A stretch of 11,140 nt of DNA from Dehalococcoidia bacterium. GTDB taxonomy: Bacteria > Chloroflexota > Dehalococcoidia > SAR202 > UBA11138. Positions 1 through 9,594 of this stretch are shown in pieces. Both the position numbers and the translations under genes were made by a program. Location: contig JAAXHZ010000057.1 in assembly GCA_012270625.1 (NCBI GenBank), forward strand, positions 1-11,140, read 5' to 3'. Under the pieces are notes generated by a model. The model did not search any database. It was not told where the DNA came from and was given only the letters and a program-made list of their open reading frames with translations. Position 1 is the first letter of the stretch; every line of letters starts with the position of its first letter.

Positions 1-1370
1 GCCTCCATCACCAGCTTGTCCATCTCCAGTTGAACGGGGATCGGATACTCGCCGGTGAAGCACCCCATACAGAAGCTGTTTCCCGCGTCTTCCAAGGCTC
101 GTGACAGCCCTTCGACGCTAAGGTATCCAAGAGAGTCTGAGCCGACCATCCGCCGGATGCCCTCGACCGACATGTTGGCCGCGATTAGCTCCTTCTTGGT
201 AGCCATGTCCACGCCGAAGTGGCAGGTGGACACGATCGGCGGCGCGGTTATCCGCAGGTGCACCTCAGCCGCGCCTCCCCTGCGCAGAAGCCTGACTACG
301 TGCGGTGTCGTGGTGCCGCGCACGATGCTGTCGTCCACTACGATAAGTCGCTTGCCGCGAATGATGCCGGGCAGCGGGTTGAGCTTCCGTCTGACACCGA
401 GATCGCGGAAGTACTGGGTCGGTTCGATAAAGGTCCGTCCGACGTAGCGATTCTTGACCAGGCCCTCGCCGTAGGGGATGCCCGATTCCTGCGCGTAGCC
501 TACGGCAGCCGCGGTGGCCGAGTCGGGCACGCCGATCACCATATCGGCTTCGACCGGGTGCTCTCTGGCCAGCTCCGCGCCCATCCGCATCCTGTCGCTA
601 TATACTAGCCTGCCTCCGAGAACGCTGTCTGGCCTGGAAAAGTAGATGTTTTCGAAAACGCAGCTTGCGCGCCTCCCGTTCGAGCCGGGGCTTTTGACCG
701 TCCTGAGACCTGAGTCGTCGATCAACACGGCCTCGCCCGGTTCGATGTCCCGAACGTAGTCGGCTCCGACGTGGTCGAGAGCGCACGACTCGGACGCGAT
801 CACCCACCCGTCACCGAGTCGCCCGAGACACAGCGGTCTGACACCCAGAGGATCTCTGATGCCAACCAGCTCGTTCTTCGTCAGCACGGTCAGCGAGTAC
901 GCGCCCTTGAGCCTGCGCATAAGGTGGGAGATGCGAGCTTCCCAGTCCTGGGCAGGCGCGTTGGCAAGCAGACTGGCGATGATCTCGGTGTCGCTGGTCC
1001 CGTCGAATCGGAACCCCTGCTCCTCCATGTCCTGGCGCAGCTCGAGGGCGTTGATGACGTTGCCGTTGTGAGCAAGCGCCAGCTCCATGTCTGGGCCGCG
1101 AGCGATGACCGGCTGCGCGTTGACTATGCGGTTGGAGCCGGTGGTGGAGTAGCGGGTGTGAGCGATCGATATATGGCCCGGAAGGTCAACCAGATCATCT
1201 TCGGCGAAGCTCTGACCAATGAGGCCCATGGAAGTGCGGTTGTGAACGCGGAGGCCGTCTGCCGATGCGATGCCGGCGCTCTCCTGTCCACGGTGCTGCA
1301 GCGCGTAAATGCCGAAGAATGCGACCCGGGCTACGTCCTGTCCAGGGTGGTAAACTCCCACCACACCGCA
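1..1370 (-). CDS. purF: Amidophosphoribosyltransferase (PurF), 3' end beyond the window
   Basis: First step of de novo purine synthesis in the cytoplasm: PRPP plus glutamine to phosphoribosylamine. The frame reads without interruption from the catalytic Cys (codon 1368-1370, context REACGVVGVYHPG) to base 1. Visible class II amidotransferase motifs are LQHRGQES, AHTRYSTTGSNR and LAHNGNVIN, followed by the PRPP-binding segment RLIVVDDSIVRGTTT. Cysteines at CVFENIYFSRPDS, STCHFGVD and SFCMGCFTGEYP match the four Fe4S4 ligands of the B. subtilis-type enzyme. About 456 residues are present, so only a short C-terminal tail is missing. The coordinate given is the mature N-terminal Cys because no standard start can be assigned: the frame stays open to 1565 (stop TAG at 1566-1568) with no ATG, GTG or TTG in those 65 codons. 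Family propeptides are normally 0 to about 11 residues. Identity is certain; the start is not. Confidence 0.95.
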
Positions 1371-1645: not shown

Positions 1646-2116
1646 CTACCCGTCACAAAGATCGCGCCGTCGGAGAAGATTCCTATGCGTTCTGCTGACG
1701 CGACCACCGCGCTGTGTCGTGTAGATGCGTCCCTGTGTGCCACCGATAATCTGTCTATCCCGAAAGTCGTCCTGGAGGGCATTGTCGTTGGTGAAAAGCA
1801 GTCGCGCTCCGCTTATCCGCGCAAGCGCGAGAACGTGCTCGTCATCGGAGCGGCATACGCCTTGGGATCGAATCGCCGTGGTTTCTGAGTCCACTACCTC
1901 ATCAGGGATTCGCCTTGCACGTCCAGCCTGCAATCTTTCAGCGAATACTCTCTTGAAATCTGCGATTCGGTTTAGTTCCCGCAGGTGCTCACCCCCCGAA
2001 ACAAAAGTTCCTCCATTCCTTTTCATCAACCAATTGTAGAAATACTTGCCTGCATTGGATTGGCTGCCTGTAGAAAAGACTTGGTGATAGACGTTCGTAT
2101 CTACGATCGCGCACAT
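1646..2116 (-). CDS. PIN-domain nuclease-like protein, partner of the adjacent ATPase
   Basis: A 156-residue protein that looks like a PIN-fold RNase. It opens with MCAIVDTNVYHQVF, the first PIN beta strand with Asp6. Later come acidic residues at E43/E47, the SDDEHVLALA helix (D91, D92, E93) and LLFTNDNALQDDF (D111, D116, D117), which suit a metal-binding active site. The C-terminus (GRIYTTQ through THRNLLRRRDLC) extends past the minimal PIN core in a way I associate with one PIN subfamily, but I cannot name it. The ATG at 2116 abuts the TAG of the upstream ATPase (TAGATG) and has no good ribosome site of its own, so translation is probably coupled. Expected role: RNA cleavage controlled by the ATPase. 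No catalytic residue appears lost. The PIN call is fairly safe; toxin or defence function is inference. Confidence 0.75.
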   Translation of the reverse strand: MCAIVDTNVYHQVFSTGSQSNAGKYFYNWLMKRNGGTFVSGGEHLRELNRIADFKRVFAERLQAGRARRIPDEVVDSETTAIRSQGVCRSDDEHVLALARISGARLLFTNDNALQDDFRDRQIIGGTQGRIYTTQRGGRVSRTHRNLLRRRDLCDG

Positions 2117-3490
2117 CTAAAGACCGATGGACCTAGTGAGTTCATCAGCGAAGAATTGACGGTAGCCTTCCGGAGCATCCAGCACGTTGCCGTGCTCGTC
2201 CAGCCTGATCGAGTGAATCTTCACGTCCGACTCGCCGCGCTCGAAGTAGAGAATCGAGACTTCTTCAGGCTTGAGATCCGTCTTCTTGTCCCGCACGTCC
2301 ACCCGAACGCGGTCGATGATATAGTCGCTGTGAGTCTCGACTACAAGTTGTCGAGCCGGTCCGGCAATTGAGCAGAACAGGCTGCCAAGGGCGGCCTGCG
2401 CTCTCGGATGCAGGTGTACCTCGGGCTGCTGCAAGAGGAATACTGACGGCGCATCTGTACGCAGAAGCTCAGTGACTATCGGCAGCGTTTGACTTACGCC
2501 GTACCCCACATCAATCAGGTTTCTGTGTACTCCCTTCAGTTCCTTTCCAAACTTCCTGATGCGGATCTGGAACGGCGCTGCATCTGTCTTGCCAAAGGAC
2601 TCCACCGAGATTTCATCGAACATCCCGGAGCTACGCCCAAACTTCACGAGGCCTTTCTTCAGGTTGCCCCACTCGTCCGAGTCTCGACGCGACATGTTGG
2701 CAAGGTATGAAGGGACATGCTCTCCTTCTGGATCCGGGATGAGCCTTGACGGATCGTAGGTGCGTCTTGGTCTTGAGCGGACCGGCGCGCCCGCAAATAG
2801 TCTTGCACTATCGGCGCCAAGATCAAGCATTCGGTCAAATCGCCATGTCGTCAGTTTCTGATACGAACTTCTGATGCGTCCTATATCATCTTCATTAAGT
2901 GAGAGTTCTTCATACTGCTCGGCTGTCTCTCGGATCGAATTCTGCGCCACATTCTCATCGATTATGTGCAGGGCGCCTCTCACCGCTGTACCAATAGGGT
3001 GCAGCCATTCACTGCGCGGTCCGAACCTATCTACCTCCGAATCCACTTTCCAGAAACGCTTTTCGATGCCAAGTCGAAGCTCTCCGCCTTGTCCCGGTAG
3101 AGTTACGGCTTCAAATGACGTATCTCCAACCGAGACGTACCTTGAGACAGGAAATGTTACTCCGTCAACGTCCTGAAACGTGAAGCGCAACAACACTGTC
3201 TCATTGGAATCCGCCGAGCATGAGTCCTGAAATCCTGCCTGGAAAGCATCAGGCTGATCGCTCCGACTGCTGTCGTTGTACACGATTTCGCTGAAAGCGC
3301 CTAGATCGTGCGGCGGCCTGCGGAAATCCGGGACTGATTCGAAGACCGCCACCTCCCACAGCGCGCGCAGGATCGCCAAGAACGACGTCTTTCCCGTGCT
3401 GTTCTCGCCGACGAGCAGTGTCAGCGGCGCCATCCGCGCCGTCTGCTCCCCTCGGAAGCACCGGAAGTCCCTGATCGTTACGCTGTCCAT
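2117..3490 (-). CDS. AAA/OLD-like ATPase (AAA_21, possibly DUF3696 type)
   Basis: A 457-residue cytoplasmic ATPase of the SMC/Rad50-like OLD group. It starts MDSVTIRDFRCFRGE, the usual 'xxIxNFRxF' entry strand, followed by Walker A GENSTGKTS (residues 28-36). An insert-rich middle follows, then the signature-like segment DVGYGVSQTLPIV (327-339), the Walker B region FLLQQPEVHLHP (351-362) and the D-loop/His motif VVETHSDYIIDRV (383-395). The C-terminus (VSILYFERGESDVKIHSI to GYRQFFADE) resembles the DUF3696 tail. The usual Walker B acid in LIEQPE/LIDEPE is Gln354 here, leaving Glu357 as the nearest acid. The ATG at 3490 sits just after the predicted promoter; no strong ribosome site is seen. 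Base composition is lower in GC than its neighbours (25/60 at 2881-2940). It is coupled to a PIN nuclease, which suggests phage defence or a toxin-antitoxin-like switch (inference). Confidence 0.85.
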   Translation of the reverse strand: MDSVTIRDFRCFRGEQTARMAPLTLLVGENSTGKTSFLAILRALWEVAVFESVPDFRRPPHDLGAFSEIVYNDSSRSDQPDAFQAGFQDSCSADSNETVLLRFTFQDVDGVTFPVSRYVSVGDTSFEAVTLPGQGGELRLGIEKRFWKVDSEVDRFGPRSEWLHPIGTAVRGALHIIDENVAQNSIRETAEQYEELSLNEDDIGRIRSSYQKLTTWRFDRMLDLGADSARLFAGAPVRSRPRRTYDPSRLIPDPEGEHVPSYLANMSRRDSDEWGNLKKGLVKFGRSSGMFDEISVESFGKTDAAPFQIRIRKFGKELKGVHRNLIDVGYGVSQTLPIVTELLRTDAPSVFLLQQPEVHLHPRAQAALGSLFCSIAGPARQLVVETHSDYIIDRVRVDVRDKKTDLKPEEVSILYFERGESDVKIHSIRLDEHGNVLDAPEGYRQFFADELTRSIGL

Positions 3491-3539: not shown

Positions 3540-5138
3540 CTACCCCACTATAGGCTGGGCGATTATCCACAGGCTGGTGGCGGTGTAGATGATCATCAGC
3601 GCCAGCATGGGTATCTGACCCCGGAGAGCGTCCGCCGCGGAGGATGAGCGTCGCTGGGAGATCACGTGCGCCAGATATACGGAGATCACGTGGCCCAGCA
3701 CGATCGCGATCAGGCTGATGAACCACACCGCCTTTGCGCCAATGATGTTCAGGTTGAGCCTGTAGTCCGCCGTGCCGAATATGTTCCACCCGAACCCGAA
3801 CGGGTCTGACGCCAGCGGAACTATCAGCTGACCCTGGATTAGCAGGAGCGTTATGAAGTGGGCCAGATTGTACGCGAGCGCTATCGGCACAAGCGAGAAC
3901 ACGTACACGCTTGCCACTTCCAGCGCGCCTGCTTCCTCGCGGGACAGCGTCTTGATCGCCCAGGCGAACGCCAGATACACAACTGCAAACAGCGCCGGGG
4001 CAAGGGCTAGAGCGACCGTGTCCACCACGTCCGAGGTCGCGAAAGACAGCATGTTGGCGCGCAGGTTCGCCCAGGTCTCCGTGTCCTGGAACCCGTCGAA
4101 GCTCACAGTGGCAAGCGCCAGAACCACGAACGCTGCTGTCGCGACGGACACGCGCTGCTGGAGTGCGAGTCCAACGGCGAATGGACGCAGGTTTAGCTGC
4201 CTGTCTCCAGCGGTGGCGTACTCGTAGCAGTCGTAGCAGTCCACACACTCGGCCTCTAGGCGGCAGTCAGAGGCGCAGTCTCGGCACACGCCCCTGTTCG
4301 TCACTCTCAGCTCCGTCGGAGAGAATCGAGAGAAGAACCCGAAGAGCACAGTGAACGCCTCGCCGTTTCGGAGCCAGGTATGCTTCCCGAACGCGGCCAT
4401 CCCGACCCACGTGACGATCGAGTACATCAGCGCCATCACCGAAAGCGTGAACGGCCTGAACGCGCCGGTGTAAACGTTTTCGGCCCATGCGAACAGGAAG
4501 AACAGCAGCAGCGCGGGCCAGATATCCAATCCCTGTGGATAGTTGAACGGAGGGTCTTCAGGCTCGTCGGATTTTACAAAAAAACCCCTCAGCCTCCGGT
4601 ACCACTCGAAGGTGATCTTCCAGGGGTTGATGAACACCCAGACGTTCCCGACCAGCGCGACGACGTACCCCATCCCAACCCACCAGATAATCCAGATGAA
4701 CGTGGGAGACAGGTTTTCGATTGCCCGGTCAGTGCCGAAGAAACCCACGACCAGCAACAGCAGAAGCGTCAGCGCCGAAACGGCCCTAATCACCACGGCA
4801 AGTATCTGGCTGGACATTACCGCGCCAATTTGCATGTCCAGCTTTAAGCTGGCTCGAAGCAGGTCCAGCCTCGGGTAGCTGAACTTCTCTGAACGCCTCT
4901 GAACGAACAGACCGATCAGCACAAACGACAGAAAGACCGTCGCCACAGCCCCAACCAGGAAGTAGTTCAGGGGTATGGGCAGGTCGTATCGCTGTCCGAA
5001 CGCATGCGCCGAGACCGGAGACACAATCAGCGCAAGCGCGCCGACAGCCGCGGCAGCTAGAATCCTCCACGCATAGCTCCCCGCTTCTTTCCCCCTCCAC
5101 CGGCTGAGATGGGCAGACAAATGTGTACAGACAGGCAT
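3540..5138 (-). CDS. Polytopic membrane protein of the 'fenitrothion hydrolase'-annotated group
   Basis: A 532-residue integral membrane protein with roughly ten or more hydrophobic segments. The N-terminal signal-like segment ends SPVSA, followed by HAFGQRYDLPIPL. This 'HxxGxRxDLPxP' opening and the FINPWK motif recur in proteins databases label fenitrothion hydrolase. That label comes from a pesticide enzyme and says little about the role here. A loop near the middle (residues 285-304) carries six cysteines in the spacing C-x2-C-x3-C-x5-C-x2-C-x2-C, suited to binding metal or Fe-S. The ATG at 5138 is chosen; a TTG at 5147 is in frame three codons upstream. Neither has a good ribosome site, and both lie inside a dispersed repeat (5124-5172), so the first residues may be repeat-derived. 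It follows the CopCD-cytochrome gene by about 160 bp on the same strand, so a membrane copper or redox role is likely but unproven. Confidence 0.8.
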   Translation of the reverse strand: MPVCTHLSAHLSRWRGKEAGSYAWRILAAAAVGALALIVSPVSAHAFGQRYDLPIPLNYFLVGAVATVFLSFVLIGLFVQRRSEKFSYPRLDLLRASLKLDMQIGAVMSSQILAVVIRAVSALTLLLLLVVGFFGTDRAIENLSPTFIWIIWWVGMGYVVALVGNVWVFINPWKITFEWYRRLRGFFVKSDEPEDPPFNYPQGLDIWPALLLFFLFAWAENVYTGAFRPFTLSVMALMYSIVTWVGMAAFGKHTWLRNGEAFTVLFGFFSRFSPTELRVTNRGVCRDCASDCRLEAECVDCYDCYEYATAGDRQLNLRPFAVGLALQQRVSVATAAFVVLALATVSFDGFQDTETWANLRANMLSFATSDVVDTVALALAPALFAVVYLAFAWAIKTLSREEAGALEVASVYVFSLVPIALAYNLAHFITLLLIQGQLIVPLASDPFGFGWNIFGTADYRLNLNIIGAKAVWFISLIAIVLGHVISVYLAHVISQRRSSSAADALRGQIPMLALMIIYTATSLWIIAQPIVG

Positions 5139-5172
5139 GAGCGCCAACTAACAGGCCCCTTCTCCCTCAGGG
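5124..5172. repeat. 49-bp direct repeat, copy 1
   Basis: It starts TGTACAGACAGGCATGAGCG and ends CTTCTCCCTCAGGG. It matches 5192-5240 at 45 of 49 positions, with a period of 68 bases. It covers the start codons (5138 or 5147) of the 532-residue membrane protein. Confidence 0.8.
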
Positions 5173-5296: not shown

Positions 5297-7531
5297 CTAC
5301 TTCAACGTCTGGATGTAGTTGATGAGATGCCATATCTCGTCTTCGGACAGCTTATCACCCATCGGCGCCATCGCAGTACCCGGGATGCCGTCCTTGATGA
5401 ACTCGAACAGCGCGCGATCGGGATGCAGCGGGACATGGACCGTCAGGTCTGCCGGGGGTGGCTCCAGGCCCGCGCCGGCGGGGCCGTCGCCCAGGCCTTC
5501 AGCGCCGTGACACAGCTGGCAGTCCTCCTGGTACACCATCATCCCGGCGGTGACCGAGTCCTGTGTCGGAGGAATCGGGTTCCGCGCAGCAACCTCCTCC
5601 CCTGCGCCGAGCGCGCCGAACAGCAACGCTCCGCCCGCGATTACGACCGCCGCGCCCACAACCATGGCTGCCGCGCCGCCACGCGAGTACCAGCCACCTA
5701 ACGGAATGCTGACTCCCATGAACACGAACCCCAGGAGCGCGAGCTCGATCCCGAGCAGCGTTCTGCCTGTATCCGCTGCCGGGGCGATAGCCAGGCTTCC
5801 TCCGCCTCCTTCGGTCACCTCGAATCTGAACGCCGCGCGCGCGTCGAATGCGTCCGGACGCTGGACGACCAGCTCGACCTGCCACGCTCCGGCAATGCCG
5901 ATTAGCTGATCGTCGAGTGCGAACTCCCCTTCGCCTATCTCCGTAGCTGAGTAGGGAGTCTCTCCAAGGTCGGCGTCTAGGTACGATAGCCCCACTCTCA
6001 CGTCGGTCGCGTTGGCGATCGGAGCGCCGGACCGGTCTGTCAGCGAAACGCCGATAACGTTGGGGCCGACCTGACCAGGATCGATCTCCAGCGTCATGCG
6101 AGTGCCCTCAGACACTTCTTCGAAGGTGAGTCCGCTCTCGACACCGATGCCCTCGCGGGACGCGACCTGTCGAGCAGGCTCCAACGACGTCAGGAAGCCC
6201 ACTGACAGGAGCGCGAGCGTCGCCAGAGCTATCTCGGCGCCTACCAAACGCTTGAGCCAGACGCTCGCAGCGTCTCCGGCGCGGAGTCTCGGTCTCACCC
6301 AAATCAGGTTCACCGCCGCTGCCAACAGCAGTGCTCCGACGATAGCCACCTTGCCTGTTAGAACCCTCCCGTATGGGACCTCCAACGCCGGCGCCACAAC
6401 CACCTGCGCCCAGGCGCTGTACATGCCCGTCAGTATGATCACGACGACGCTGAGCCCCGCGACCAGCGAGAACCTGCGCACAAGCGTCGAGAGCATTTGG
6501 CGTCGCTCCGACTTGTCGCGGATACGCAGAACGAGTCGCGCGGCCAGGGCAAGTCCGCACAGTCCACCGACCCACACGGCCACCGCGACCAGGTGAATGA
6601 AGTCGTTGGCTATCGCTTCCGTTCGGACGTTGACCGTCGCGGCCGCGTGGCTGGTCAGACTGATCGCCAGCAGCATGCCTGCGCCCAGCGCTGCGCTGAG
6701 CGCCACCAGCGTTGCGCTGTCCCATCTGCGCCAGGCAGCGATCACCGCCGCCGCGGACGCCGCTCCGAGCGCGACACGCCACAGCCACAGGCGCCCCCAT
6801 TCCGTATCGAACAGCACCTCCCAGACGGGGCCGCCAAACACCGCGGGCAGCGAGGACTCGAACACCACAGACGCCTGGACGATAAGCTGGGCCACAGACG
6901 CCGCCAGCAGGACACCGACCGCGATTGTCACCAGCCGCGCCAGGGAGCCGGTTAGAGTCGAGTTGAGAGCAGCTCGATCTCGCCCGTTGCCGTCGCTCTT
7001 GAGCGCAGGCCTGGAAACCAGGAGGTGAAAGGTCACACCTCCCACCAGTGTCAACCCTCCAAGCAGTACCAGCCATTGGATGACCGGCTCCGCCGGTGAC
7101 TGGAACAGTGGTTGGTCGGCGACTGCCGCAGCAGTACCCCCTGAGATCGGTTCACCCACTGAGAAGACGAAGGCGCCCCTGACACGATGACCGTCCACAG
7201 TCGAGACGTTCTTCCATGCCACCGTGTACGTGCCCTCGGCCAGCGGTCCCACCGATACCGACATCAGGAGCGGGTCTGACGGATCGACCACACTGTCCTG
7301 TCCGTCCACACGGTCGCCCCGCGAGTCGAACACCTGGATCTCACTGAGCGCAGGCTCAAGCGGCTCTGTGAAACGAATCGTGACGCGCGACGGGGACTTC
7401 TCGACCACCGAGTTGGCCGCGGGGTCAGACTCCGCATAGTTGGCGTGCGCCTCCACCAGCGCCGGAGCCGACACAAGCAGAACAAGCAGCGCCAGGACGA
7501 CCCAAGTCGCCGCAAACGCCCTGCCGCTCAC
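5297..7531 (-). CDS. CopC-CopD-cytochrome c fusion, copper uptake/redox protein
   Basis: A 744-residue fusion. A signal peptide (about 1-28) ends VEA, and the CopC domain follows from HANYAESDP to about residue 126. The predicted N-terminal His29 with D113 and H115 (STVDGHRVRGAF) reproduces the Cu(II) ligands of CopC. A CopD membrane domain spans about 148-450 with conserved-looking H295 and H313 (NDFIHLVAVAVWVGG). Next comes an extracytoplasmic beta domain (about 465-575) like those in YtkA/FixH-type proteins, two further membrane segments (about 592-642), and a C-terminal class I cytochrome c domain with CQLCH haem motif (671-675) and likely Met axial ligand M721 or M724 (GTAMAPMGDKL). CopC/CopD bring copper across the membrane; the attached haem suggests electron transfer coupled to copper state (inference). 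The GTG start at 7531 overlaps the TGA of the redoxin gene (GTGA), so the two are translationally coupled. Confidence 0.9.
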   Translation of the reverse strand: MSGRAFAATWVVLALLVLLVSAPALVEAHANYAESDPAANSVVEKSPSRVTIRFTEPLEPALSEIQVFDSRGDRVDGQDSVVDPSDPLLMSVSVGPLAEGTYTVAWKNVSTVDGHRVRGAFVFSVGEPISGGTAAAVADQPLFQSPAEPVIQWLVLLGGLTLVGGVTFHLLVSRPALKSDGNGRDRAALNSTLTGSLARLVTIAVGVLLAASVAQLIVQASVVFESSLPAVFGGPVWEVLFDTEWGRLWLWRVALGAASAAAVIAAWRRWDSATLVALSAALGAGMLLAISLTSHAAATVNVRTEAIANDFIHLVAVAVWVGGLCGLALAARLVLRIRDKSERRQMLSTLVRRFSLVAGLSVVVIILTGMYSAWAQVVVAPALEVPYGRVLTGKVAIVGALLLAAAVNLIWVRPRLRAGDAASVWLKRLVGAEIALATLALLSVGFLTSLEPARQVASREGIGVESGLTFEEVSEGTRMTLEIDPGQVGPNVIGVSLTDRSGAPIANATDVRVGLSYLDADLGETPYSATEIGEGEFALDDQLIGIAGAWQVELVVQRPDAFDARAAFRFEVTEGGGGSLAIAPAADTGRTLLGIELALLGFVFMGVSIPLGGWYSRGGAAAMVVGAAVVIAGGALLFGALGAGEEVAARNPIPPTQDSVTAGMMVYQEDCQLCHGAEGLGDGPAGAGLEPPPADLTVHVPLHPDRALFEFIKDGIPGTAMAPMGDKLSEDEIWHLINYIQTLK

Positions 7532-8229
7532 GGCGCCATCTGGTCTAGCTGCGCCAGAATCATCTCCGCCGTTGGACGGTCGGTGATGTCTCGGCCCACG
7601 TGAAATGCAAGGACCTCTCCGGCCCCATCCAGGATGAACGTCGCGGGCGCAGCCACGCCGTCGCCGTGCCGGTCGAACACGCCGTAGTCATGCGCCACGC
7701 TCGCGTCGTCGTCAGCCAGTATGTAGAAGCCCGTCCCGTGCCCCGATACGGGATCGGCTCCCACAAACTCCGCCATGTTCTTCGCGTCGAGCACATTGTC
7801 CGTGCTTATTGCGACGAGCGCGACATCACGCTTCTCGAACTCCGGGTACGCCTCCGCCAGCTCACCGAGCTGGCTGCGACATATCCCTCAGAAGAAGCCC
7901 CGATAGAACACCAGCGCCACGGCCTGATGCTCTTCGATAAGCCCCGACAGCGACACCTGATCGCCCCGAGCTGAAGACAGGCTGAAGTCTGGGGCGATTG
8001 CGCGAGCTGCGGGACTATCCCCGGGAGGCGGGGCGGGAATCGAAGGAGTCGCCGTAGAAGCCGGAGCCGAAGTGGACGCCGGCGCAGCGGTCGGAGTCGG
8101 GGGCGTCACAGACTCCGAGCCGCAGGCCATCACCACGAAGACCGTCAAAGCGGCGACAAAGTACACCCCCACTCTCAGGAGGGAATTCTGGTTCTGGAGT
8201 GGGGCTGACACAATGACTCTCCCGGTCAC
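7528..8229 (-). CDS. Selenocysteine-containing redoxin (AhpC/TSA-like) lipoprotein, UxxC
   Basis: A single 233-residue gene read through an in-frame TGA at 7888-7890 (residue 114). Before the TGA are a hydrophobic signal with lipobox-like VVMAC (Cys36), a Pro/Thr/Ser/Ala-rich linker (about 42-75), then APDFSLSSARGDQVSLSGL and VALVFYRGFF. After the TGA come GICRSQLGELAEAYPEF, then VALVAISTDN and a complete redoxin fold to residue 233. In AhpC/TSA-type relatives this spot reads FYRGxWCxxCRxQL, so the TGA sits on the first Cys of CxxC and would give U114-G-I-C117. The frame is intact on both sides and a SECIS-like stem-loop follows (7844-7887), which is strong evidence for Sec rather than a broken gene. 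It would be an outer-face thiol/selenol oxidoreductase. The GTG start at 8229 overlaps the previous gene's stop (GTGA), and its own stop overlaps the CopCD-cytochrome start. A 27-bp repeat is inserted in frame (7729-7755, reading DPVSGHGTG). Confidence 0.87.
7729..7755 (-). repeat. 27-bp palindromic repeat, copy B (inside redoxin gene)
   Basis: On the minus strand it reads GATCCCGTATCGGGG then CACGGGACGGGC, aligning with copy A over the full 27 bases. It adds nine codons in frame (DPVSGHGTG) between FVGA and FYILADDD. Relatives would be expected to run more directly from the helix into the strand here. Confidence 0.7.
7844..7887 (-). promoter_or_regulatory. Bacterial SECIS element for the redoxin UGA
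   Basis: It begins on the base after the TGA. The lower stem is GGG-(bulged A)-TATG paired with CGTACCC (7 pairs, one T-G). A 5x5 internal loop TCGCA/GGAGG follows, then a perfect 8-bp upper stem GCCAGCTC/GAGCTGGC with apical loop GGT (7864-7866). The loop starts 21 nt after the TGA and begins with GG. Both features fall within the known bacterial SECIS rules (loop about 16-37 nt downstream, with an early G). It would recruit SelB with Sec-tRNA. Confidence 0.85.
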
Positions 8230-8924
8230 GAGTTCCTACTTCGTATGGACAGTACCAGCGACACACAGCCGAAAGCCATGCCGCCCGCGCCCAGGACTAT
8301 GCCGATTATAGCCATTGTGGCAGTGGCGCTATCAGGCGCGTCGTCTGTATCGAGTGTCTCCTCGGACGCCGCCTGCAACCCTCGAACCGCCGACTCCAGT
8401 TCCCGTGCTGACACGACCGCATCAGGGAAGTGTATCGCAGCAGCGGGCTGCACGTCATCGAAGTAGCCGCCACCGGCCTTTGAATCGAAGATCGCGTCGA
8501 TCTGCTCTCCCTCTATGGCTCCGAAGAGGCGGAATCGGTAGTGTCCCGGCGATGTCGGGATCAGGTCGGCCGCGTAGTGACCTGGGTCGTTGAAAACGGC
8601 CCGCAGGTTCATCGTCTTGGAGACGGCAGATGGAACGTGGGTCACTTCCACCTGGAGCGTGTCCTCCAGTCCCTCGATCGGAGGGGCCTCAGCATCGTGC
8701 TGCTCTCCCATCTCCATACCCGACGACTCTTCTTCCTCGTCTCCGCTCCCCTTTGTCACGCGGAGGCTTACCGCGTTCTTCTCTCCCTCGTAAGCGGGTT
8801 CGTGCAGGAATCCCACGACGAGCTTGTAGCCTCCCTCTTCTCGATCTTCGTGCGCCAGCACGACACTCGATGCCATCGCAGCGAGCGCCGCTACTATCAA
8901 GATTGCTATCAGTGATCTAGTCAA
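8226..8924 (-). CDS. Exported, C-terminally anchored protein of the copper module, unknown family
   Basis: I do not recognise a named family. The 232-residue product has a signal peptide ending SSVVLA, with His25 as predicted first mature residue (HEDREEGGYKLVVGFLHEP). The beta-rich extracytoplasmic domain resembles the Ig-like 'YtkA/FixH' proteins seen near CopC genes. An acidic Met/His stretch (EEEESSGMEMGEQHDAE, about residues 64-80) could hold copper. A single C-terminal membrane helix (about 203-226) ends in IRSRNS. The TTG at 8924 is preferred because GGAGG lies five bases upstream; another in-frame TTG at 8936 would precede that ribosome site. Its stop overlaps the redoxin start (GTGA). 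A role in extracytoplasmic copper binding is inferred from context and composition. Confidence 0.75.
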   Translation of the reverse strand: MTRSLIAILIVAALAAMASSVVLAHEDREEGGYKLVVGFLHEPAYEGEKNAVSLRVTKGSGDEEEESSGMEMGEQHDAEAPPIEGLEDTLQVEVTHVPSAVSKTMNLRAVFNDPGHYAADLIPTSPGHYRFRLFGAIEGEQIDAIFDSKAGGGYFDDVQPAAAIHFPDAVVSARELESAVRGLQAASEETLDTDDAPDSATATMAIIGIVLGAGGMAFGCVSLVLSIRSRNS

Positions 8925-8929
8925 GACCA

Positions 8930-8934
8930 CCTCC
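8930..8934 (-). promoter_or_regulatory. Ribosome binding site fixing the TTG start at 8924
   Basis: GGAGG on the minus strand, five bases (TGGTC) before TTG at 8922-8924. It favours this start over the TTG at 8934-8936, which overlaps the site itself. Confidence 0.65.
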
Positions 8935-8937
8935 AAA

Positions 8938-9018: not shown

Positions 9019-9594
9019 TCAGCGTCTGCCACTTTGGCCGTTGGCTCTCTGCTTCAGGAATGCACGCATGGAAAGTCCCAGGATGATCACGAATGCCAGC
9101 AGCGTCGCCAAGGTGATGATTCCCGCGATCGGGCTCGCCCGCTTCACGTCGTATGTGAACAGCGCCGAGCCGCTGCCGTCCTCACCGGACACGGTGATCG
9201 TTACCGCCCAGGGGCCTTCGTTCTCCAGGACAGCGCGCGCCTCGTACAACGACGGATCATACGAGTCAGGTCCGAACATCAGCGGAGCGCCCGGACCTTC
9301 CGGCCCCTCCGGGACAGCCCTGACGACCGCGTTCGGCACGCGAACGCCTGTGTCTGGGTCTGCCACCTGAAGGATGAGGATCGCCTCGCCCACAATCGGA
9401 GGGTCAGGTATGGTGCCGAGCAGAAGCTCGTAAGGCCCTGCCTGGGCCTGCTTGGTGAGCTGAAATCCGCTCCCGTGCGCGCCGACCCAGTCGGCGACGG
9501 ACAGCCCAACGGCTGCCGCCACCAGGAAAACAGTGCATACAAGCGCGAACTTCAGGCAGGGCGCGCCCTGCACCCGTAAAACAGAAAACCGCAC
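9019..9594 (-). CDS. Exported YtkA/FixH-like membrane-anchored protein
   Basis: A 191-residue product from a GTG start. An internal start at the GTG of codon 8 is also possible, since the hydrophobic signal begins near residue 14. The signal segment (about 14-39) ends DWVGA, leaving His40 as predicted first mature residue (HGSGFQLTKQAQAGPYELLLG). The following beta domain (about 50-150) has the pattern 'GPYxLxxGTxPDPPxVGExxLxLxVxDPxTG' of YtkA/CopC-like Ig folds, with a long GP-rich loop. A C-terminal helix (about 155-176) with basic tail QRANGQSGRR anchors it. It probably sits on the outer face of the cytoplasmic membrane in the copper module. Exact partner and ligand are not visible; no Cys or Met-rich copper motif is present in the domain. 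Confidence 0.75.
   Translation of the reverse strand: MRFSVLRVQGAPCLKFALVCTVFLVAAAVGLSVADWVGAHGSGFQLTKQAQAGPYELLLGTIPDPPIVGEAILILQVADPDTGVRVPNAVVRAVPEGPEGPGAPLMFGPDSYDPSLYEARAVLENEGPWAVTITVSGEDGSGSALFTYDVKRASPIAGIITLATLLAFVIILGLSMRAFLKQRANGQSGRR

What the first reader, a model, noticed from the sequence alone, without database searches (positions are those of the whole stretch)
7528..8229. Hidden selenoprotein: redoxin lipoprotein with UGIC active site
Two apparent ORFs join in one frame through a TGA that sits exactly on the first Cys of the FYRGxWCxxC redoxin motif; the second Cys (C117) is kept. Fold-typical sequence continues on both sides, with no frameshift. Standard gene callers would split it or call a pseudogene. 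Known families: AhpC/TSA (peroxiredoxin-like) redoxins; UxxC versions of Prx/thioredoxin-like proteins are known from bacteria. What looks new is a secreted lipoprotein form inside a copper/cytochrome operon.
Basis: partly seen in the sequence, partly recalled or inferred. Interest (0 to 1): 0.92.

Follow-up and report, generated by a model that had tools for sequence, protein, structure and literature searches.

The report
Membrane-anchored selenocysteine redox protein
A bacterial gene that looks cut in two by a stop signal is very probably one gene for a secreted redox protein that puts the rare amino acid selenocysteine in its active site; it belongs to a type known since 2005, in a branch that protein databases often hold only as truncated fragments.

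Summary
On the minus strand, 8229-7528 is one open frame interrupted only by TGA 7890-7888, on the first Cys of the redoxin CxxC; C117 is kept.

Selenocysteine is strongly supported. In a search with the front half, 114 of 118 hits end at this site. Cys counterparts exist (P0002, P0134). In Acidobacteriota DNA, 36 of 44 aligned TGA-bearing relatives have TGA at this codon, all with C117; the other 8 have it in the known TxxU position. Of the 33 genomes holding those 36 loci, 32 have selB and 31 selA, against 0 of 18 chosen controls. Codon choice after these TGAs favours a SECIS-like hairpin; the window's hairpin meets the published model but is only modestly unusual alone.

Limits: no genome is held for the window, so its own selA/B/C/D are untested. 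The copper link rests on gene order in this window; it was absent around 10 Acidobacteriota loci.

Kind: UxxC 'Prx-like' selenoproteins, known since 2005 (PMC1088965); a new lipoprotein-like branch, not a new kind. The most novel lead is six database fragments implying tandem redoxins with two Sec.

The parts
7528..8229 (-). Sec-redoxin gene read through the internal TGA (233 codons + stop); probable true start GTG 8211
   Evidence: N-termini of relatives
7888..7890 (-). in-frame TGA, predicted selenocysteine (U114), at the first Cys position of CxxC
   Evidence: Cys there in P0002 and P0134
7879..7881 (-). C117 (TGT), second residue of the UGIC redox motif
7856..7874 (-). core of the SECIS-like hairpin: 8-bp stem (7874-7867 with 7863-7856), loop GGU 7866-7864, 21 nt after the UGA; a lower stem extends it
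   Evidence: model constraints from PMC13188914 section 5
8122..8124 (-). C36, lipobox-like VVMAC; predicted lipid-modified Cys after a hydrophobic stretch
   Evidence: sequence and alignment with N-termini of two relatives; inferred, no signal-peptide predictor run
5297..7531 (-). next gene: CopC + CopD + cytochrome c fusion, overlapping the Sec gene's stop by 4 nt
8226..8936 (-). preceding gene, 236 aa exported/membrane-type protein (by eye) without a Pfam match; its stop overlaps candidate start 8229
9019..9594 (-). 191 aa exported/membrane-type protein (by eye), weak YtkA-like match below cut-off

Best explanation
The locus encodes one extracytoplasmic, probably lipid-anchored selenoprotein with a peroxiredoxin-like fold and a UxxC (Sec-Gly-Ile-Cys) redox centre. 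Shown by sequence: one frame, TGA on the redox Cys, Cys/TGA pairs in relatives, and codon bias for a hairpin after TGA in relatives. Inferred: SelB-dependent insertion of Sec at UGA through the hairpin 21 nt downstream. Inferred: the Sec (aligned with the Thr of TxxC in a peroxiredoxin and with the first Cys of CxxC in Cys relatives) is the attacking residue and C117 resolves it as a selenenylsulfide, giving a thiol:disulfide reductase or thiol-dependent peroxidase on the outer face of the membrane. Inferred from gene order only: it serves the products of its operon, a CopC-CopD-cytochrome c fusion, for instance by keeping copper- or haem-binding Cys reduced or by removing peroxide there. The confidence given is for the selenoprotein with a UxxC centre, not for the substrate.
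For: Pfam domains span the TGA. 8 of 14 homologues end at the TGA site and the other 6 have Cys there. 114 of 118 hits with the N-half end at FYRxx[FWY] (the window's own fragment P0022 included). P0134 is a lipoprotein-like Cys counterpart with FCEIC. In Acidobacteriota DNA, 36 of 44 aligned TGA-flagged loci have TGA exactly at residue 114 with C117 kept, 8 of 44 in the TxxU position, none elsewhere. In the 33 genomes holding the 36 loci: selA over cut-off in 31, selB in 32, selC-like tRNA at E <= 1e-10 in 31; 18 chosen control genomes: selB 0 and selA 0 over cut-off. Over 105 genomes, selC-like tRNA at E <= 1e-10 in 61 of 68 TGA-flagged vs 19 of 37 others, Fisher 2e-5. Synonymous codons after TGA favour a SECIS-type hairpin: 35 loci, Wilcoxon 1.3e-7; 18 Cys loci, 0.29. 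Window hairpin -19.7 kcal/mol, loop GGU, spacing 21 meets the bSECIS model. Fold: nearest solved structures are AhpE peroxiredoxins.
Against: The window's own genome is not held, so its Sec machinery is untested. The window hairpin alone is only modestly unusual: 48 of 2715 background codon positions (some of them overlapping this hairpin) and 31 of 1000 synonymous recodings are as strong, and 1776 of 2715 background positions pass -7.5 kcal/mol in this GC-rich DNA. 4 of 35 TGA loci have no hairpin reaching -7.5 (L006, the best match, has -6.0). The loci with DNA are from another lineage at 28-38% identity by local tblastn. selC-like tRNA is common in the sampled phylum (228 of 297 genomes over Rfam's own cut-off). 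1 of 33 genomes (G081) lacks selB over cut-off, 2 of 33 (G081, G227) lack selA, and 2 of 33 (G272, G202) miss the selC cut, perhaps because genomes are incomplete. One control (G267) has a below-cut-off selB match over positions 171-578. The CopC-CopD link was not found beside 10 Acidobacteriota TGA loci (about 1.5 kb or less on each side) or in 16 kb around the best one. No biochemical evidence on the reaction.
Confidence: 0.9

Rival explanations
1. Pseudogene or sequencing error: a Cys codon (TGC/TGT) turned into TGA by mutation or miscall.
For: A single base change would give TGA from TGC or TGT; standard ORF calling splits the gene.
Against: 113 database entries besides the window's own end at the same position, including relatives 81% (P0034) and 74% (P0037) identical over the front half; 36 Acidobacteriota loci have TGA at the same codon; the frame downstream is intact, with coding-like G+C by codon position.
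Confidence: 0.03
2. UGA is read as another amino acid (for example Trp, or Cys by a recoded tRNA) rather than selenocysteine.
For: The frame would be open under such codes as well.
Against: The upstream gene and this gene both end in TGA, so TGA is a normal stop here; the TGAs fall only on redox positions in the 44 aligned TGA-flagged loci; selA and selB co-occur.
Confidence: 0.02
3. The protein is a real selenoprotein but works as a peroxiredoxin-type peroxidase in which C117, aligned with the Cys of AhpE that is peroxidatic (recalled), attacks peroxide and Sec114 resolves it.
For: Best sequence and fold matches are AhpE peroxiredoxins, and C117 aligns with the Cys of FTGIC; the protein matches the PrxU and AhpC models weakly.
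Against: The Thr of TxxC is replaced by Sec, as in UxxC Prx-like proteins, whose predicted active site the literature calls thioredoxin-like (PMC1088965, passages). No kinetic data.
Confidence: 0.3
4. The product has no relation to copper or cytochrome handling; the neighbourhood is incidental.
For: Neither 10 Acidobacteriota TGA loci nor 16 kb around the best one encode relatives of the five neighbours tested.
Against: 4-nt overlap with the CopC-CopD-cytochrome c gene in the window.
Confidence: 0.4

Closest known systems
Prx-like selenoproteins with UxxC (Prx-like thiol:disulfide oxidoreductase, PF00578, UxxC/UxxU; 'Prx-like 1' of the ocean survey)
   Same: AhpC-TSA domain and Sec at the first position of UxxC (PMC1088965, PMC2398784, PMC13188914: passages and tables)
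   Different: lipoprotein-like N-terminus with a P/T/A-rich linker, and a CopC-CopD-cytochrome c operon; below every NCBIfam cut-off. The published sequences were not compared one by one.
Redoxin family selenoprotein (PF08534, UxxC)
   Same: PF08534 match 2.9e-19 and UxxC
   Different: not compared sequence by sequence; its reference accession was not fetched
SelL-related redox proteins (NF040769)
   Same: best NCBIfam match, 1.4e-14
   Different: 54.1 bits against a cut-off of 120; UxxC here, whereas SelL has UxxU (recalled)
Selenoperoxiredoxin PrxU (NF040737) / TxxU peroxiredoxins
   Same: same fold family
   Different: Sec sits three residues earlier than in TxxU proteins; 52.9 bits against a cut-off of 270
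AhpE 1-Cys peroxiredoxin (PDB 1xvw, 4x1u)
   Same: closest solved fold, TM-score 0.85 by target length for 4x1u_A, and the FxGIC context
   Different: Thr where this protein has Sec

Membership tests
bacterial selenoprotein | in-frame TGA at a position held by Cys in homologues, with homology on both sides | tested here: met
bacterial selenoprotein | SECIS hairpin directly downstream (loop 3-9 nt, stem 4-16 bp, G in the first two loop positions, spacing 16-37 nt, MFE <= -7.5 kcal/mol) | tested here: met
   against the model in PMC13188914 section 5; the criterion is permissive in this GC-rich DNA
bacterial selenoprotein | selA, selB, selC, selD in the same genome | not testable with these tools
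   no genome held for the window; in Acidobacteriota with homologous TGA genes selA 31/33, selB 32/33; selD was not searched there
Prx-like UxxC selenoproteins (PF00578) | AhpC-TSA/redoxin domain | tested here: met
Prx-like UxxC selenoproteins (PF00578) | thioredoxin-like UxxC in place of TxxU | tested here: met
   definition seen in PMC1088965 (passages)
SelL-related redox protein (NF040769) | score over the curated cut-off | tested here: not met
   54.1 of 120 bits
PrxU (NF040737) | score over the curated cut-off | tested here: not met
   52.9 of 270 bits
bacterial lipoprotein | N-terminal hydrophobic segment followed by a lipobox Cys | tested here: inconclusive
   VVMAC36 by eye; a strict pattern of mine matched 71 of 114 truncated relatives but not the window's own N-half P0022; no dedicated predictor run

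The most novel reading that the evidence does not exclude
A large, hardly annotated clade of extracytoplasmic Sec redoxins (probably including Chloroflexota) uses selenium outside the cell for copper/haem handling, and part of it has duplicated the domain into tandem redoxins that carry two Sec residues in one chain.
Probability: 0.3. Interest if true: 0.65.

Novelty: new member of a known kind. Interest (0 to 1): 0.42.

Why it matters
It shows that a sizeable branch of probably extracytoplasmic selenoproteins sits in databases as truncated proteins, 103 of the 118 found without a precomputed Pfam domain, so selenium use by these bacteria may be under-counted. If the operon link is real, it would connect selenium to extracytoplasmic copper and cytochrome handling, which can be tested directly. 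The tandem fragments would be an unusual two-Sec protein design in bacteria.

Tried and rejected
Rejected: frameshift or pseudogene (recurrent position); genome-wide UGA reassignment (TGA is the stop of this gene and of the upstream gene); the window's hairpin taken alone as proof. Rfam gave 0 matches at gathering score in the window. Led nowhere: viral-contig scans; phages and plasmids by tblastn (1 phage record and 68 plasmid records, all below 60% identity; the plasmid relative from a Chloroflexota record was not followed up); genome contigs with P0001 (1 distant Acidobacteriota locus with Cys, which led to the genomes); third protein search (4 hits including the query itself). Paper searches on Acidobacteriota, Chloroflexi/SAR202 and tandem or multi-Sec bacterial selenoproteins listed nothing that names this branch (listings; passages in PMC12013277 and PMC5029168). 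PMC12013277 lists 3 known selenoprotein genes in one Acidobacteriota genome, so selenoproteins in that phylum are in print. Not done: selD search; any search of Chloroflexota genomes, because no handle there could be had.

Caveats on counts. In one search the query was itself a profile of truncated proteins and only proteins of 0.55-1.75 times its length could be candidates (and only the 7992 sharing most words were scored), so full-length Cys forms were largely excluded; what counts is that the ends coincide. In one search I passed 75 loci plus the window: 50 flagged TGA and 25 not, taken from the top of a list of matches that was itself cut; 6 of the 50 gave no tblastn hit and were dropped; 3 of the 36 (L052, L053, L060) have a different motif (VDRGFI-TGA-PFC); 2 of the 18 unflagged loci with Cys at 114 have Ser at 117. 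One search dropped one TGA locus with an N and includes the window; its non-TGA group includes one TGA-bearing TxxU locus (L044). In one search I copied 105 of 297 genomes by hand from the lists; TGA positions of genomes beyond the fetched loci were not checked, one genome with a TAG (G143) was left out, and the E-value cut for selC was chosen by me after seeing the values. The 18 control genomes were chosen for lacking both a listed TGA gene and a clear selC, so they are not a random sample.
Full report
What is there. On the minus strand, 8229-7528 is a frame of 233 codons with a single internal stop, TGA 7890-7888, and a terminal TGA 7530-7528. Standard ORF calling gives two pieces, 113 and 88 aa. 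Read through, the product carries AhpC-TSA (3.5e-24) and Redoxin (2.9e-19) domains that span the TGA. The TGA falls on the first residue of the redox motif FYRGFF-U-GIC; C117 is kept. The frame overlaps the CopC-CopD-cytochrome c gene by 4 nt, and the preceding gene by 4 nt if it starts at GTG 8229; the start is more likely GTG 8211, with GGGAGAG shortly upstream and matching the MSAPLQN-type starts of relatives, which leaves 14 nt to the preceding gene. The truncated reading would leave about 356 nt between the stop and the CopC gene.

Homologues. A search of about 5.8 billion proteins with the read-through product gave 14 hits: 8 end exactly at FYR[GA][FYW][FW] and 6 have Cys at the position. 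A search with a profile of three front halves gave 118 hits, of which 114 end at FYRxx[FWY]. The four others are two that depart from the family before the motif (P0070, P0089), one with FYRSANW and one with FYYDYT at the end. The query being a front half and the length filter mean that full-length Cys forms were largely excluded, so the share is not a rate; that so many proteins end at the same residue is the point. Cys counterparts: P0002 (FYRGFFCGIC) and P0134, a lipoprotein-like protein with FCEIC. Named sources among the hits are a Chloroflexota MAG (P0097) and Bryobacteraceae (P0090, P0100); the host of the window itself was not identified.

DNA of relatives. No genome is held for the window. 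Through L001 (an Acidobacteriota MAG) 297 genomes of that phylum could be searched: 270 match, and many of the listed matches carry exactly one TGA. I examined 75 loci, 50 flagged TGA and 25 not. 44 of the 50 aligned; TGA lies exactly on residue 114 in 36 and in the TxxU position of known selenoperoxiredoxins in 8 (7 aligned to residue 117 and one, L044, with the same motif shifted by an alignment gap); in none of the 44 does it lie elsewhere, and all 36 keep C117. Of the 25 unflagged loci, 18 have a Cys codon at 114 (2 of them with Ser at 117) and 7 have another residue at 114 with C117 kept.

Sec machinery. In the 33 genomes that hold the 36 loci, selA is over the family cut-off in 31, selB in 32 and a selC-like tRNA at E <= 1e-10 in 31. 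In 18 control genomes chosen for lacking a listed TGA gene and a clear selC, selB is over cut-off in 0 (12 have weaker matches) and selA in 0. Over 105 genomes, a selC-like match at E <= 1e-10 is found in 61 of 68 TGA-flagged and 19 of 37 others (Fisher 2e-5). By Rfam's own cut-off 228 of 297 genomes have a tRNA-Sec match, so the trait is common in this phylum. This is evidence for the gene family; it does not test the window's organism.

Hairpin. The window's mRNA folds into an 8-bp stem with loop GGU, 21 nt after the UGA, -27.9 kcal/mol over 61 nt (z -3.1, 2 of 200 shuffles as stable) and -19.7 for the constrained hairpin. It meets the constraints of the bacterial SECIS model as printed in PMC13188914 (section 5 read). 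On its own this is modest: 48 of 2715 background codon positions, some overlapping this hairpin, and 31 of 1000 synonymous recodings are as stable. Across relatives the signal is firmer: TGA-following hairpins are more stable than those at non-TGA loci (36, the window included, against 26; p 8e-5), and synonymous codons after TGA favour such a hairpin in 35 loci (mean z -0.90, Wilcoxon 1.3e-7; 31 of 35 reach -7.5 kcal/mol) but not in 18 Cys loci (mean z -0.13, 0.29; 7 of 18 reach it; difference 0.002).

Mechanism. In the alignment with AhpE, U114 stands on the Thr of FTGIC and C117 on its Cys (that these are catalytic in AhpE is recalled). The AlphaFold model has mean pLDDT 77.9; its ten-residue blocks from 81 to 230 average 88 or more except 161-170 (69), and residues 1-38 are below 50. 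Its nearest solved folds are AhpE peroxiredoxins. Most likely Sec attacks and C117 resolves, a thioredoxin-like centre in a peroxiredoxin fold, at the outer face of the membrane. A peroxidase with C117 as attacking residue remains open. Service to the CopC-CopD-cytochrome c product is inferred from the gene overlap only; relatives of the window's neighbours were not found beside 10 Acidobacteriota TGA loci or in 16 kb around the best one.

What is known. PMC1088965 (passages) describes 22 Prx-like selenoprotein sequences with a UXXC motif in place of TXXU. PMC2398784 (passages and tables) lists Prx-like 1 (PF00578, UxxC) with 225 sequences. PMC9312934 and PMC13188914 (passages and tables) list Prx-like thiol:disulfide oxidoreductase and Redoxin family protein with UxxC. 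The window's protein meets these definitions and scores below every NCBIfam cut-off. It is therefore a new member, of a lipoprotein-like branch. My paper searches showed no description of that branch or of tandem redoxins with two Sec in the listings; the papers listed were not all read.

Tandem lead. Six fragments (P0003, P0009, P0011, P0013, P0014, P0015) begin within the post-Sec half of one redoxin and end, after a linker, with the pre-Sec half of a second one, cut exactly at residue 113 of the window's protein. P0011 and P0013-P0015 are close to one another, so they are not six independent cases. This implies two in-frame stops in one gene; the DNA could not be fetched.

Noticed in passing
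database proteins P0003, P0009, P0011, P0013, P0014, P0015: Fragments holding the back half of one redoxin and the front half of another, the second cut at the Sec site: likely tandem redoxins with two Sec.
   Followed up: partly
database proteins such as P0090, P0092, P0095-P0096, P0098-P0100, P0106, P0109-P0112, P0114-P0117, P0121-P0124, P0127, P0131: A second architecture: mostly about 140 aa with what look by eye like several N-terminal membrane segments, also ending at FYRGYW, some named as Bryobacteraceae; a likely membrane-embedded Sec redoxin.
   Followed up: no
L036, L042, L044, L046, L047, L055, L058, L061: Acidobacteriota loci with TGA in the TxxU position, the known selenoperoxiredoxin arrangement.
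   Followed up: partly
L052, L053, L060: UxxC loci with a different motif, VDRGFI-TGA-PFC; perhaps another Sec family.
   Followed up: no
window 1646-3490, minus strand: AAA ATPase (AAA_21/AAA_15) gene directly followed by a short gene with a PIN-domain match just below cut-off; looks like a toxin-antitoxin or defence-like pair.
   Followed up: no
window 3540-5147, minus strand: 535-aa membrane-type protein with a Cys-rich loop (CRDCASDCRLEAECVDCYDC) and no Pfam or NCBIfam match.
   Followed up: no
window 3-1364, minus strand: purF (amidophosphoribosyltransferase), over the family cut-off.
   Followed up: no
P0001 residues 160-167: The window's protein has an 8-residue insertion (PVSGHGTG) absent from the four Cys relatives aligned.
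   Followed up: no
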